Source: an uncultured Lachnospiraceae bacterium
Lineage (GTDB): Bacteria > Bacillota > Clostridia > Lachnospirales > Lachnospiraceae
Length of the DNA: 64,000 nucleotides
Direction of reading: 5' to 3'
Assembly: GCA_950097145.1 (NCBI GenBank)
Contig: CATNCF010000007.1
Coordinates: 25,572 to 89,571, forward strand
Part shown: piece after piece, positions 11,980 to 61,429 of the stretch
Numbering within the stretch: position 1 is the first letter of the stretch
Layout of the letters: every line of letters starts with the position of its first letter
Made by a program: the position numbers and the translations under genes
The notes under the pieces: model-generated
The model's database searches: none
Told to the model about the DNA's origin: nothing
The model's input: only the letters and a program-made list of their open reading frames with translations

Positions 11980-12068
11980 GTAACAGTTCAGCCATGCTAA
12001 TCATGAGCGGATAGCCTGCTTTGCAGGCGGTCTGTGGCTTGTTATAAAGGTGCGGGCTGAACTGTTAC
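11980..12068. repeat. Structured inverted-repeat element, family 1, short copy
   Basis: An 89-bp element bounded by a perfect 14-bp terminal inverted repeat (GTAACAGTTCAGCC). Its core on the minus strand, CAAGCCACAGACCGCC followed by a CCTGC-AAA-GCAGG hairpin and CTATCCGCT, is shared with the copy at 19184. The inner hairpin differs as C-G here and T-A there, so pairing is kept. It abuts the stop codon of the nucleoid-protein gene and lies 36 bases before the -35 box of tRNA-Leu. No transposase is inside. It may be a REP-like or MITE-like mobile repeat or an RNA structure. Confidence 0.8.
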
Positions 12069-16407: not shown

Positions 16408-18147
16408 TTATTCCCCCTGTCCTACTGTGATCGGCTCTTCCAAATAATCTTCCAGTTTATCGTTAATTGCCTGTATATAAGCAATCCTATCTTGTTGTCC
16501 CCAAAAATGAACCTGATTGCCCTCTGACGGAGTATAATATTTTAAAAATACCATCTTCGTGCAAAATGGGATATACAATCCGTTTTGATCCATTTCAATA
16601 ATCTTGTTTCGTTTTACATCAAAGGTAGAATTACTAAGCGCTGCATTATTACTGCTATTTAACAATACCAAATTACCAATTGAATGTAGATATTCACCGT
16701 TTCCCTGTACAGAGAGTTTTTCTATTACTTTTTGCTGAAGCCTTTCGAATTCGTGTTTCTTTAATTCCTTTTTTTCCAAAAGTTCCTCTATGTTCTTTAC
16801 CAGTCCTGTTTGTTTATCTCCAATAGCTCTGAGAGACCGAACATGATCGGAAAGCCACATTCTCCACTCTTCCTGCTTGTTCATACCCTCTGATTGCTGT
16901 GCATGGATATGTTCGAGCGTCCATGAAACATCTGCCTTAAACCTGTCAAAAGGAAACCTTTGTGATTGTTCTTCTATCTTTCTTACAGATTCAATGTTAA
17001 ACAAAAGAAGAAGCCTGCTTATTCTTGCGGCATCTCCGCTTTCTTCATAACTTAGTTCTGCATAATTACCATCAATCTTAATACTTTCACGTATATAATC
17101 ATCCAAAATTTCACAAAATTCACTCTTTTTCTTATTTCTGGATGCCATATAAATCTCTGTTAGGTTCTTTGCCCCCGAAGCAATCAGGAAACCCACCTTA
17201 TGATAAAATTCATGATTCCAATACCAATCTTTTAGGACAAGAAATATTCCCATAATTTCCTGCCACAAATCATCCAGGCTTTTTTCTTTTCTCATTTCTT
17301 CAAAAGCAAAGAAAGTTCCATACTTATCAGCATTCTTTTTCTTTTCGTACAATTTGCTTTTTTCACACATCAGATCAAGAATCAGGTCAATCCTTGTGGT
17401 ATCTGCCCCCCTGTTTTTACTATTTGTCAAGAAAAACCACAAAGAATCATTCCTTAATTCTTTCTCTATAGTGTCCCATTGCAGAGCAATTTCCTCCTGT
17501 TTTTTGTCATATGGCATGATATGTTCGTTTTCACCATAACTCCCACGGCTTAGAAACATTGCTTTCACAAGCTCTGCACTTGTAAGGGCAATCTTTCCGA
17601 TATTAAGCCGTTCAAACAGTTTCACAGGATTTTCATTTTCATCTGCCTCATACCAGATTACTTTTACATTATCTGTGAAATATTTGTTCATACTAAAGAT
17701 TGCTGTTGCAGGATCTTCTTTCGCCTTTGTCCACTCGCTGATTGTTTCCAAAGCGTTACACATATACCAAAAATCAATATTATCCTCTTTCATTGACATA
17801 TCCATCTCTTCAAGAAAATCCTCTTTTTCCGGTCTTGTCTTATATTTTAATGAAAACTTCGGTTTCTTTATCAGATTGGATACCTGTGTGTGCATATAGT
17901 GATAAATAATATAAAGTGTGGTCAGTCTCTGTTGTCCATCTATCAATTCATAATAATCCCCATGATTTTTTATAACAATAGGCTGTAAACAATATCCTTT
18001 TACCTCATTTCCATGCAGATTATAAATATCATCAAGCAATCGCACAACCTCATCCGTTCCCCAACGATACCCCCGCTGATAGGATGGTACTACAAATACT
18101 CCCTCTATCTCACTTACTTTCTTCGTTGTCGGCTTTATATCTGCCAT
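16408..18147 (-). CDS. DUF262/DUF1524 (GmrSD-like) putative nuclease
   Basis: A 579-residue protein with an N-terminal DUF262 domain (VVPSYQRGYRWG near residue 20, LIDGQQRLTTLY near 70-80, a family GLFERLN-like KLFERLNIGK) and a C-terminal DUF1524-like HNH region (LEHIHAQ, IGNLVLLNSSNNAALSN, FDVKRNKI). This is the architecture of fused GmrSD type IV restriction enzymes that cut modified DNA. GAGGAGG precedes the ATG. It is followed at once by a second DUF262 protein lacking HNH motifs, an unusual pairing that suggests a two-component complex. The target modification cannot be told. Confidence 0.85.
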   Translation of the reverse strand: MADIKPTTKKVSEIEGVFVVPSYQRGYRWGTDEVVRLLDDIYNLHGNEVKGYCLQPIVIKNHGDYYELIDGQQRLTTLYIIYHYMHTQVSNLIKKPKFSLKYKTRPEKEDFLEEMDMSMKEDNIDFWYMCNALETISEWTKAKEDPATAIFSMNKYFTDNVKVIWYEADENENPVKLFERLNIGKIALTSAELVKAMFLSRGSYGENEHIMPYDKKQEEIALQWDTIEKELRNDSLWFFLTNSKNRGADTTRIDLILDLMCEKSKLYEKKKNADKYGTFFAFEEMRKEKSLDDLWQEIMGIFLVLKDWYWNHEFYHKVGFLIASGAKNLTEIYMASRNKKKSEFCEILDDYIRESIKIDGNYAELSYEESGDAARISRLLLLFNIESVRKIEEQSQRFPFDRFKADVSWTLEHIHAQQSEGMNKQEEWRMWLSDHVRSLRAIGDKQTGLVKNIEELLEKKELKKHEFERLQQKVIEKLSVQGNGEYLHSIGNLVLLNSSNNAALSNSTFDVKRNKIIEMDQNGLYIPFCTKMVFLKYYTPSEGNQVHFWGQQDRIAYIQAINDKLEDYLEEPITVGQGE

Positions 18148-18277
18148 ACCCTTTCCTCCTCACGATTTTTCCAGTTTTTGTTGACTATTACTTTTCCAAT
18201 TTCTCTATCACTTGTTCCAACACGTACCGTTTCAATATTCTGCTGGGATGAGGCTTATGGAAATTTATCCTTTTTGC
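18148..18277. other. Gap with no convincing gene
   Basis: Upstream of the second DUF262 gene an ATG overlaps the stop of the membrane-protein frame (ATGA) but the frame ends after eight codons. Two other frames hold protein-like stretches of about 25-35 codons without a proper start, so this may be a remnant of a small third gene. It contains the ribosome site GAGGAGG of the DUF262/DUF1524 gene. I see no terminator. Confidence 0.4.
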
Positions 18278-18733
18278 TCATTTATCACTCTCCCCTGCAT
18301 ATTTAAAATGAATCATCATAAGATACTTAAGCCATTTATCTTTTTTATTCTTAGGTTTTATAGTTAATCCAATAAAAAATGTTGATAACGCCATCATTCC
18401 GTATCCAAGCAAGTCATAACTAAACAGTAATCCAGCTATCATCATAATGTAACCTAAAGCCAGAAATATACATACAAGATATTACTCCGGCGGTTAAATG
18501 TCGACGAATTTTACGAAGAATAAATTTTCATCTGCAAGGCGGAAGAATGAGTTGTAGCGAGTGCTACAACGATTGATGACAACGCGGCAGATGGAAATTT
18601 AAGCAAGTAAAAACGTCGATATTTAACCGCCGGAGTAATAACATCCAAATTTTGATATAACCATAAAAATTGCAAATAAAAATACTGATACCGTAACCAA
18701 CAACGAACCAAATTTAGCAATCGCTTTATTCAT
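18278..18733 (-). pseudogene. Small membrane-protein gene interrupted by a 157-bp element
   Basis: The ATG at 18733 opens a frame MNKAIAKFGSLLVTVSVFLF... that reaches a stop inside the inserted element after about 36 codons. If the element (18482-18638) and one flanking TA are removed in silico, the frame runs on for 98 codons as a three-helix membrane protein ending in a basic tail (KPKNKKDKWLKYL...). The stop overlaps an ATG (ATGA). It lies at the head of the DUF262 genes behind a promoter-like region and a perfect palindrome, so it may once have been part of that operon. I do not recognise the family. Confidence 0.85.
18482..18638. mobile_element. MITE-like palindromic element, family 2, copy 1
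   Basis: A 157-bp sequence flanked on both sides by TA (18480-18481 and 18639-18640), with terminal inverted repeats of about 26 bp including TTACTCCGGCGGTTAAAT. It folds almost completely on itself: outer stem, TTTTAC/GTAAAA, an ATCTGC/GCAGAT arm and a central GTTGTAGC-GAGT-GCTACAAC hairpin. It has no coding capacity. It interrupts a membrane-protein gene, and removing it with one TA restores the frame. TA flanks and size are what one expects of elements moved by Tc1/mariner/IS630-type transposases. Confidence 0.9.
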
Positions 18734-18770
18734 GTTAAATATTCCTTCGTAAATGTAAATATGATGAATT

Positions 18771-18796
18771 ATCAAATTGGCAAATACCAATTTGAT
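18771..18796. promoter_or_regulatory. Perfect palindrome, probable operator
   Basis: ATCAAATTGG and CCAATTTGAT form a perfect 10-bp inverted repeat around a 6-base spacer. It lies 38 bases before the ATG of the disrupted membrane gene and overlaps the expected transcription start next to a TACAAT -10-like box (18800-18795, minus) preceded by TGA. There is no U-tract, so an operator for a dimeric repressor is more likely than a terminator. Confidence 0.5.
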
Positions 18797-18959
18797 TGTA
18801 TCATACTTTTATACGGATTCATACAACTTTTATGAATATTATATCTATTCTAATCTAAAGTATAATATATCATCAAGATATAATGGACAGATACTTTTGA
18901 ACGGGCACTTGGATAGACTTATTAAAAAGTGTACTCAATTATTTCAGTAACAAAAATAA

Positions 18960-18988: not shown

Positions 18989-19001
18989 AGAGCTTTTTCT
19001 A

Positions 19002-19085
19002 TGCGGAAGATGGGACTTGAACCCACACGTCTATACAGACACAAGATCCTTAGTCTTGCCTGTCTGCCAATTCCAGCACTTCCGC
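19002..19085 (-). tRNA. tRNA-Leu(UAA)
   Basis: An 84-base class II tRNA: acceptor GCGGAAG/CTTCCGC, D arm with GGAATTGGCAGAC, anticodon stem CAAGA/TCTTG with loop CTAAGGA giving anticodon TAA, a variable arm GTCT/AGAC, and T arm with GTTCAAGTC. Discriminator A; CCA is not encoded. It has its own promoter and terminator, in the same layout as the tRNA-Leu(CAG) locus 7 kb away. Confidence 0.96.
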
Positions 19086-19125
19086 AGACAATCAATAATT
19101 GCCACGTCATCTTGACGACTTAAAA

Positions 19126-19183: not shown

Positions 19184-19358
19184 GTAACAGTTCAGCCATG
19201 GTCAGCATGATGGGTGAATCATGCTGGCATGAATGAGCACATCGTGCTGACCAGGAGCGGAATGCCCCTTAAGCCTCAGACAGAAGCTGCAAATCAGCGG
19301 ATAGCCTGTTTTACAGGCGGTCTGTGGCTTGTTTGAGGGGCATGGGCTGAACTGTTAC
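19184..19358. repeat. Structured inverted-repeat element, family 1, long copy
   Basis: A 175-bp element with the same perfect 14-bp ends (GTAACAGTTCAGCC) and the same core as the copy at 11980, with additional stems: ATGCCCCT/AGGGGCAT, AAGCC/GGCTT, and a GGTCAGCA/TGCTGACC arm. The central hairpin is CCTGT-AAA-ACAGG, a compensated change from the short copy. The first 48 bases on the minus strand form the last 15 codons plus stop of the GGDEF-EAL gene. The far end lies 29 bases from the -35 box of tRNA-Leu(UAA). Confidence 0.82.
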
Positions 19359-21029
19359 ATATTTTCTTGAAAAATCTTCTGCCGACATAGGACGGTCAAA
19401 ATAAAATCCCTGAATCATATGTATCTGCATTTTTTTCAGAATCTCATACTGCCTGCTGTGTTCCACACCTTCCACGCACACTTTCATCCCAATGACATTT
19501 GCCAGTTCACACACGATTCTCACAAAAACATCTGCAAACTCATCCTGTCCAAGATCCTCTATAAAACATCGGTCAATCTTAATCACATCTATGGGCATTT
19601 CCCTGATATGATTGAGGGAACTATATCCTGTCCCAAAATCATCCAGGGCCACACGCACGCCCAATTCCCGAATCTGACCCAGAATACTCTTCATCCGCTC
19701 CATATCATTAATGGCAAGGCTCTCTGTCACTTCCAGAGTCAGATTCTTAGGATTGATGCCTGTCTCTTCTAACGCTTCACGCACCTGATCAATAATATCA
19801 TTTCTCAAAAGCTGTACAACAGAAAGATTTACATTTACCTTATAATCTGGATATCCGGATTCATTCCATACCCTGCACTGACGGCACGCCTGCCGCAGCA
19901 CATGGCCCCCAATGGGATTGATAAGCCCAAGATATTCTGCCAGGGGAATAAATTCTGCCGGGGAAATAAAGCCAAGTTTTTCACTATTCCACCGAATCAG
20001 CGCTTCTGCCCCTATACAAGGATTTTCTGATTTTGTTACATCTACAATAGGCTGATAATAAACTTCGAACTCATTACAAGCGTTCATTGTGGCATCCCGC
20101 ATATTTTTCTCCATATCCAGCCGCTTAAAGGACACGCCCTTTACAGAATCTGTGTAAAATTCATAACAGTTCTTCCCGGATTTTTTCGCTTCCAGCAAAG
20201 CCAGATCCGCTTTTCGGATCAGATCCTGAACGGAATCTCCATCACCTGGAAAACGCGCAATTCCCATGCTCATAGTGCAATAATAATCTGCTCCTTTTAA
20301 GAACCAGGGTTTTGAAAATATCCCGGCAATGCCTTCTAATATTTCATCCAGCATTTCATACTTATTCTCTGTGACAATAATAATGAATTCATCGCCGCCC
20401 ATCCGGTAACAATTGCTCTCAATCCCCTCAATTCTCTGCATACTGTGAGAAATAGACTTCAGCAGTACATCTCCATACTGATGCCCCAAACCGTCATTGA
20501 TATGTTTAAAGTCGTCCAAGTCCATATACAGCAGCGCACCCTCACTTCCATTCTTCTTACTGGCAGTAATCTGAGCCTCCAAATCCTTTTCACACCGCAT
20601 ACGGTTATAAAGTCCAGTCAAAAAGTCATTGTTGGCCTGCCGCTCAATTCTCTGCTGGTAACGCTTATTCTCTGAAATATCATAGAGTGTATATAATTCT
20701 GCTTTTTCCTGATCCAGCCACTGGATTTCCCGGCGGTGGATCTCGAACCAGCGGTCCTCCCCAGGCAGATATACTTCCCTGCTCTTGCCATCTTCCAGCT
20801 CTATGAGAAGATGTTCCTTGATATCTGCATCATTTTTCAGGCAGGTACAGAATTCCTCATTTGCAAATAAAATCCGGTCGCCTTCCAGTGAAGAGACACA
20901 GATACCGCAGTTTAGATTGTTTAATACTTCAATTCCAGAAGTATAGAAATCAATCTCCTGATACATAAAGTCTTTCCATTCCCACTTTTCATGTTCTAAC
21001 AGCTTCTTATTTTCTGATTCCATATTCAT
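19311..21029 (-). CDS. PAS-GGDEF-EAL cyclic-di-GMP protein
   Basis: A 572-residue cytoplasmic protein with a PAS-like N-terminal part (about 25-120), a GGDEF domain with the intact signature RMGGDEF (211-215) and an EAL domain with EALIRW near residue 349, DDFGTGYSSL and KIDRCFI. Both diguanylate cyclase and phosphodiesterase motifs look intact, so it could make or break cyclic di-GMP. There is no membrane segment. It starts 8 bases after the HEAT-methyltransferase gene. Its last 15 residues (VTVQPMPLKQATDRL) are read from repeat family 1, replacing the native C-terminus. Confidence 0.92.
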   Translation of the reverse strand: MNMESENKKLLEHEKWEWKDFMYQEIDFYTSGIEVLNNLNCGICVSSLEGDRILFANEEFCTCLKNDADIKEHLLIELEDGKSREVYLPGEDRWFEIHRREIQWLDQEKAELYTLYDISENKRYQQRIERQANNDFLTGLYNRMRCEKDLEAQITASKKNGSEGALLYMDLDDFKHINDGLGHQYGDVLLKSISHSMQRIEGIESNCYRMGGDEFIIIVTENKYEMLDEILEGIAGIFSKPWFLKGADYYCTMSMGIARFPGDGDSVQDLIRKADLALLEAKKSGKNCYEFYTDSVKGVSFKRLDMEKNMRDATMNACNEFEVYYQPIVDVTKSENPCIGAEALIRWNSEKLGFISPAEFIPLAEYLGLINPIGGHVLRQACRQCRVWNESGYPDYKVNVNLSVVQLLRNDIIDQVREALEETGINPKNLTLEVTESLAINDMERMKSILGQIRELGVRVALDDFGTGYSSLNHIREMPIDVIKIDRCFIEDLGQDEFADVFVRIVCELANVIGMKVCVEGVEHSRQYEILKKMQIHMIQGFYFDRPMSAEDFSRKYVTVQPMPLKQATDRL

Positions 21030-61170: not shown

Positions 61171-61429
61171 AAAAGGGCTGCTGCAAAATGCAGGGATTCT
61201 ACAATATATTACTAAGGCGGTTAAATGTCGAATGAATTTTACGCAGAATAAATTTCTATCTGCAAGGCGGAAGATTGAGCTGTAGCGAGTGCTACAGCGA
61301 TTGATGACAACGCAGCAGATAAAAATTTAGACAAGTAAAAACATCGACATTTAACCGCCTTAGCAATAAAGTAACAAAAAGAGTTTGTACCGTATATTGT
61401 AGAAATCCCTCTTTTACAACAGCCCCTTT
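61171..61429. repeat. Outer palindromic element, family 3, carrying an inserted family 2 element
   Basis: Two arms of about 38 bases (61171-61208 and 61393-61429) are imperfect inverted repeats with ends like AAAGGGGCTGTTGTAAAA and TTCTACAATATA. In silico removal of the inner element (61209-61366) and one TA leaves a hairpin of about 100 bases with a 24-base loop. Size and ends resemble palindromic MITEs or very long terminators. There are no internal genes. Confidence 0.75.
61209..61366. mobile_element. MITE-like palindromic element, family 2, copy 2
   Basis: A 158-bp relative of the element at 18482, flanked by TA on both sides (61207-61208, 61367-61368). The ends are TTACTAAGGCGGTTAAATG and its near-perfect inverse (one mismatch). 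The central hairpin is GCTGTAGC-GAGT-GCTACAGC. Against copy 1 the outer CC/GG pairs become AA/TT, T-A becomes C-G in the centre, and C-G becomes T-A in the ATCTGC arm, all compensated. It has no coding capacity. Confidence 0.9.

What the first reader, a model, noticed from the sequence alone, without database searches (positions are those of the whole stretch)
18278..18800. A 157-bp TA-flanked element interrupts a membrane-protein gene, and its removal restores the frame
The element 18482-18638 sits between two TA dinucleotides. Deleting it plus one TA on paper joins codons GGA TGT TAT CTT GTA and restores a 98-codon three-helix membrane protein. The net insertion (159 bp) is a multiple of three, but stop codons inside it end the frame. 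Frame restoration plus target duplication is direct evidence of mobility, probably recent since the gene remnant has not decayed. The broken gene heads the DUF262 operon.
Basis: seen in the sequence. Interest (0 to 1): 0.87.

Follow-up and report, generated by a model that had tools for sequence, protein, structure and literature searches.

The report
Jumping DNA hairpin splits gene remnant
The 157-base insert is one copy of a small jumping-DNA hairpin found in dozens of copies per genome in many species of one genus of gut bacteria; it carries the end signals of a known kind of transposon (IS630 type) and sits in a membrane-protein gene that relatives suggest was already shortened, so it is a new family of a well-known kind, its tiny 45-base versions being the most unusual feature.

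Summary
The element at 18482-18638 is 157 bp, lies between two TA dinucleotides, and removing it plus one TA rejoins a 98-codon frame. It is a non-autonomous MITE of the IS630 (Tc1/mariner) type. The own genome holds about 40 copies; the window copy is 100% identical to four others. Across the genus 94 of 102 non-redundant copies have TA on both sides, and four copies at other loci match uninterrupted homologous sites in relatives. An intact IS630-family element in a sister species shares 21-22 of 27 terminal bases. No such transposase was found in the 83%-complete own genome.

Two inferences need correcting. The empty site at this position cannot be tested: no genus relative held has this block. 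The 98-codon gene is probably not an intact ancestor: its only homologues are 199 aa, so it lacks about 58 internal residues and its C-terminal part. The DUF262 (GmrSD) link is adjacency only.

Bonus: the hairpin covaries along its whole length, and a 45-bp micro-element (14 copies, 4 species, unrelated sites) is little more than two abutting transposon ends. Verdict: new member of a known kind.

The parts
18482..18638 (.). 157-bp IS630-type MITE (CTCCGG subfamily)
18480..18481 (.). left TA of the duplicated target
18639..18640 (.). right TA of the duplicated target
18482..18511 (+). left terminal inverted repeat (30 nt without TA)
18609..18638 (-). right terminal inverted repeat (30 nt without TA)
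18551..18570 (.). central stem-loop GTTGTAGC-GAGT-GCTACAAC with two-sided (compensatory) changes in relatives
18278..18733 (-). membrane-protein gene remnant split by the element (98 codons when rejoined; homologues are 199 aa)
16408..18147 (-). DUF262 / GmrSD-type gene, neighbour only
61209..61366 (.). second copy of the family in the window (CTAAGG subfamily, 158 bp, TA on both sides)

Best explanation
The insert is a miniature inverted-repeat transposable element (MITE) of the IS630/Tc1-mariner type. It codes for nothing and consists of two 30-bp ends around a folded-back spacer. A transposase encoded elsewhere recognises the ends, mobilises the element and inserts it at a TA, which is duplicated. 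Shown: sequence, copy number, TA on both sides, full/empty comparisons at other loci, an IS630-family element with matching ends in a sister species, identity of several copies. Inferred: that an IS630 transposase moves it in trans, and that this copy inserted into a TA of an already shortened membrane-protein gene, ending its frame with stop codons. A transcript of either strand would fold into a 161-nt hairpin, a plausible RNase III target; that is not shown.
For: Own genome: 81 BLAST matches representing about 40 copies on many contigs; window copy 100% identical to copies on contigs 2, 13, 16 and 22. Present in 19 of 25 genus genomes, with one weak match in 16 genomes of other families. 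Exact end pattern in about 85,000 species genomes: 62 stretches, titled Lachnospiraceae (Petralouisia muris, strains A2, 3-1, X68, mouse-gut MAGs) except one 'Eubacterium sp.' MAG and one 'uncultured bacterium' MAG. TA on both sides in 94 of 102 non-redundant copies, one side in 8, none in 0; TA frequency 5.6%. Full/empty: a 99%-identical copy at G000:C3:29385 splits GGAATA|GTTTT, unsplit with one TA in seven relatives; a copy in G024 against G015, 81% over 168 bp ungapped; a glycoside-hydrolase-3 copy and a PDDEXK-nuclease copy against unsplit homologues. IS630 partner in G043: two intact 1146-bp copies (TAs included), 348-aa transposase, Pfam DDE_3 6.5e-34, NCBIfam IS630 206 bits over a cut-off of 100; ends equal to the MITE's at 21-22 of 27 positions including TA, seven other IS630 groups at 8-16 of 24.
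Against: No transposase of this lineage in the own genome, though it is an 83%-complete draft whose contigs often end inside copies. No autonomous element with exactly the TTACTCC end in any genome or locus examined; the partner's ends differ at 5-6 of 27 positions. The window position itself has no testable orthologue.
Confidence: 0.93

Rival explanations
1. The element is a stationary structural repeat (a bidirectional terminator or RNA hairpin) kept for a regulatory function, and its copies spread by recombination instead of transposition.
For: Whole-length hairpin with two-sided changes in 19 of 54 pairs, 0 of 500 shuffles reach this; several copies lie just downstream of genes; central stem scored as terminator-like.
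Against: TA on both sides of 94 of 102 copies, single-TA empty sites, copies that split genes, ends shared with an IS630 element. A hairpin role in addition to mobility is not excluded; palindrome correction could also cause the covariation.
Confidence: 0.04
2. The element is mobile, but by a transposase of another family that also targets TA; the likeness of its ends to the G043 IS630 element is convergent or ancient.
For: No IS630 element with the exact TTACTCC end was found and none of this lineage in the own genome.
Against: 21-22 of 27 end positions shared at both ends; of the IS630 groups examined only this one comes close; TA duplication is the mark of IS630/Tc1-mariner (PMC2170065).
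Confidence: 0.06
3. The split gene was a functional short (98-aa) paralogue until the insertion.
For: The rejoined frame is open for 98 codons (about 0.0008 by chance) with an ATG at 18733 that lines up with the start of the homologues.
Against: The only homologues found are 199 aa; the window frame lacks about 58 internal residues and the C-terminal part, and its neighbours differ.
Confidence: 0.25

Closest known systems
RUP (repeat unit of pneumococcus), proposed to be mobilised by IS630-Spn1 (PMC3049150, PMC2229807)
   Same: Non-coding, about 100-160 bp, terminal repeats like those of an IS630 element, TA insertion, tens to a hundred copies, can split genes (a restriction gene among them, PMC3049150).
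   Different: Other host and length (157-158 bp instead of 107), almost fully palindromic, and no partner transposase found in the carrying genome. No RUP sequence was compared here.
Correia / NEMIS elements of Neisseria (PMC10969869, PMC2229807)
   Same: About 155 bp in the full form, terminal repeats, TA-ended; hairpin transcripts cut by RNase III there.
   Different: Unrelated host; regulatory roles are shown there and none is shown here.
ISY100, an IS630/Tc1-mariner element studied in vitro (PMC2170065)
   Same: TA target and duplication; 24-bp terminal repeats recognised by the transposase.
   Different: Autonomous. The 45-bp form of the present family is shorter than two ISY100 ends (2 x 24 bp).

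Membership tests
MITE of the IS630/Tc1-mariner type | terminal inverted repeats | tested here: met
   32-nt arms including TA, 91% complementary
MITE of the IS630/Tc1-mariner type | TA target duplication | tested here: met
   94 of 102 copies TA/TA; unsplit sites with a single TA at other loci
MITE of the IS630/Tc1-mariner type | no coding capacity, a few hundred bp at most | tested here: met
   157 bp, stops in all six frames
MITE of the IS630/Tc1-mariner type | many dispersed copies | tested here: met
   about 40 in the own genome, present in 19 of 25 genus genomes
MITE of the IS630/Tc1-mariner type | ends shared with an autonomous IS630 element | tested here: met
   21-22 of 27 positions at both ends with the G043 element; in a sister species, not in the own genome, and not identical
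MITE of the IS630/Tc1-mariner type | moved in trans by that transposase | not testable with these tools
   needs a transposition assay
IS630 family (partner element in G043) | IS630-type transposase with DDE_3 domain | tested here: met
   NCBIfam NF033545 206 bits, cut-off 100; Pfam PF13358 117 bits, cut-off 28.6
RUP | sequence of the RUP repeat | not tested
   likeness rests on PMC3049150 and PMC2229807 only
Rfam RNA family | match to a curated RNA model | tested here: not met
   only two tRNAs in the window reach a gathering score

The most novel reading that the evidence does not exclude
The family includes a 45-bp micro-element (TTACTCCGGCGGTTAAAT[GA]TCGACGAATTTTAACCGCCGGAGTAA) that itself moves: two transposase-binding ends placed almost back to back. 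Fourteen copies in four species sit at unrelated places, 13 with TA on both sides. If it transposes as such, a Tc1/mariner-type transposase can pair and cut two ends with virtually no DNA between them, which a stiff double helix should not allow; a hairpin (single-strand) intermediate, or pairing of ends from different copies, would be needed. Repeated deletion inside 157-bp copies at short repeats (as the 36- and 42-bp forms suggest) is not excluded.
Probability: 0.4. Interest if true: 0.6.

Novelty: new member of a known kind. Interest (0 to 1): 0.35.

Why it matters
It adds a MITE family, with a probable partner IS630 lineage, in a mouse-gut Lachnospiraceae genus; the literature searches made here turned up no report of it. 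It coincides with many contig ends in this draft genome and marks insertions in flagellin-like, glycosidase and nuclease genes. The length classes (181, 156-158, 69, 45, 42 and 36 bp) offer a natural series for asking how short a Tc1/mariner-type element can be and still move, and the whole-length covariation raises the question whether the hairpin itself matters for movement or for RNA.

Tried and rejected
No match to the element in plasmids, phages or viral contigs, so no sign that it travels on these. Lone end matches at C1:104824, C19:39039 and C34:27461 of the own genome were read for an autonomous element: no transposase beside them. A DDE_3 search of the own genome gave one 22-bit fragment with no matching ends nearby. 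Seven other IS630 end types of the genus are unlike the MITE. Transposase search of the loci from the species-genome scan: none. Homologues of the membrane protein in plasmids and viral contigs: none. Empty-site queries for two further own-genome copies did not span the junction because the flanks are not syntenic. The 98-aa query and the third row of A1 carried one wrong residue (Y for C at position 35, my typing); the correct frame is and was used. The conclusion does not depend on it.

Full report
What is there. It is 157 bp, TTACTCCGGCGGTTAAATGTCGACG...CGTCGATATTTAACCGCCGGAGTAA, between two TA dinucleotides. The arms 18480-18511 and 18609-18640 are 91% complementary, and the whole 161-nt stretch folds back on itself (-73.5 kcal/mol, z -12.8). 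All six frames of the element contain stops. Taking out the element and one TA rejoins GGA TGT TAT CTT GTA and gives a frame of 98 codons.

It is a repeat family. In the window's own genome (3.05 Mb, 80 contigs, 83% complete) the DNA finds about 40 copies, many of them at contig ends. Two main subfamilies exist, with CTCCGG ends (157 bp) and CTAAGG ends (158 bp). A second copy in the window lies at 61209-61366. The window copy is 100% identical to copies on contigs 2, 13, 16 and 22, which indicates recent spread. The family was found in 19 of 25 genus genomes, and in 16 genomes of other families there was one weak match. An exact end pattern run over about 85,000 species genomes gave 62 stretches, titled Lachnospiraceae bacterium A2, 3-1, X68, Petralouisia muris and gut MAGs.

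It duplicates TA. Of 102 non-redundant copies from all loci held, 94 have TA on both sides, 8 on one side and none on neither; TA makes up 5.6% of dinucleotides in the window. Unsplit relatives of split sites exist. (a) The copy at G000:C3:29385-29545 splits GGGAATA|GTTTTAC; G021 and six other genomes carry the continuous GGAATAGTTT with one TA. Conservation to the left of the TA is short there, 5 to 12 bases. (b) A copy in G024 (L061) splits a sequence that is continuous in G015 (L089), 81% identity over 168 bp with no gap. (c) A copy shifts the frame of a glycoside hydrolase family 3 gene: the rejoined protein matches the Pfam domain across the junction, 7.4e-21, and a homologue in G015 aligns across it at 63%. 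(d) A copy lies in a PDDEXK-family nuclease gene that is continuous in homologues of G022 and G015, 66-67%. Items (c) and (d) are homologous, not proven orthologous, sites. A further copy splits a flagellin-like gene.

A partner exists in the genus. A search for the IS630 catalytic domain across 29 genus genomes, followed by a search for these ends near the hits, singled out one IS630 lineage. G043 has two intact copies of 1146 bp including the TAs, with a 348-aa transposase (Pfam DDE_3 6.5e-34; NCBIfam IS630 206 bits). Its ends, TATTACTTTGGCGGTTAAAACTCGACA and TATTACTTCGGCTATTAAAAATCGACA, match the MITE ends at 21-22 of 27 positions; seven other IS630 end types match at 8-16 of 24. Further, mostly decayed, copies occur in G014, G015, G019, G023 and G042, and none in the own genome. 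An autonomous element with the exact TTACTCC end was not found. The MITE has this end type, but the precise mobilising transposase remains unknown.

The split gene. The 98-aa product has no Pfam or NCBIfam match. The only relatives in 29 genomes are 199-aa proteins in G022 and G042. They align with the window frame at the N-terminus and, at 74% over 42 residues, in the part GLLF-YDLLGYG; between these the window lacks about 58 residues, and it ends where the relatives go on for about 50 more. The relatives follow a TetR-like gene and precede a short cysteine-containing protein (my reading of the frames); in the window neither neighbour is present. The simplest reading is that the gene was already shortened when the element arrived; a short paralogue is possible. 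The DUF262 neighbour is a GmrSD-type protein. The block DUF262 + split gene lies next to tRNA-Leu (19001-19086); the tRNA-Leu and the GGDEF/EAL gene beyond it are conserved together in many genus genomes, the block is not.

The hairpin is kept. In 19 diverse copies, the 54 pairs of the fold form standard pairs in 94.6% of cells; 19 pairs show two-sided changes against 7.7 expected from shuffling (0 of 500 shuffles reach it) and 5-11 in slid controls (first seen). Six of the eight pairs of the central stem, which is not part of the ends, show two-sided changes. Either the single-stranded fold matters (as RNA, or as DNA during movement), or the arms are kept alike by palindrome correction, a mutational process known to me from general knowledge. 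These data do not separate the two. The sequences are related, so the shuffle count is not a probability.

Micro-elements. The family has sharp length classes: 36 (1 copy), 42 (3), 44 (5), 45 (14), 69 (3), 156-158 (57), 181 (5) among 102 copies. The 45-bp form occurs in G000, G014, G022 and G023 with one and the same inner junction. The flanks are unrelated, and 13 of 14 have TA on both sides. Its two ends almost touch. ISY100, a studied IS630/mariner element, has 24-bp ends thought to be the minimum (PMC2170065). I rate movement of the 45-bp form at 0.4: the shared junction and six copies in G022 speak for it; the 36- and 42-bp forms, explainable by deletions at short repeats, show that in-place shortening probably also happens, and one 45-bp copy with altered but mutually matching ends (L168) could be an independent deletion.

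Comparison and verdict. In make-up and behaviour this is like RUP of the pneumococcus, attributed to IS630-Spn1 (PMC3049150, PMC2229807), and like the Correia elements (PMC10969869). It meets every defining feature of an IS630-type MITE that could be tested. It is a new family of a known kind, and the finding at this locus is ordinary apart from the micro-elements and the hairpin covariation.

Noticed in passing
window 19184-19358 and 11980-12068: A second repeat family with ends GTAACAGTTCAGCC (175-bp and 89-bp copies), each near a tRNA gene; many copies in the genus, some in tandem triples (G044:C1:448178-448707). At 19184 the relative G021 lacks it, and the flanks suggest a duplication of about 8 bp (ATATTTTT / ATATTTTC), unlike the TA of the first family. 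It overlaps the 3' end of the GGDEF/EAL frame 19311-21029.
   Followed up: partly
L160-L173, L177-L182; own genome C8:56242, C21:29119, C25:24776: 45-bp micro-elements with an identical inner junction in four species, and 36/42/44/54-bp forms.
   Followed up: partly
window 16408-18733, beside tRNA-Leu 19001-19086: The GmrSD-type DUF262 gene and the split gene form a block absent from the conserved tRNA-Leu/GGDEF neighbourhood of genus relatives; it looks like a small tRNA-adjacent island.
   Followed up: partly
L014 (G000:C3:29385-29545): The copy there splits a conserved GGAATA...CATAGAATC motif upstream of a small membrane-protein gene; the motif resembles a sporulation-type promoter (recalled, untested), so the insertion may alter expression.
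   Followed up: no
G042 contigs 5, 47, 91, 96, 208 and others (L112, L117, L122, L125, L127, L128): Several C-terminal fragments (65-68% identity) of the partner IS630 transposase at or near contig ends, suggesting a multi-copy, different sublineage of that IS in G042.
   Followed up: no
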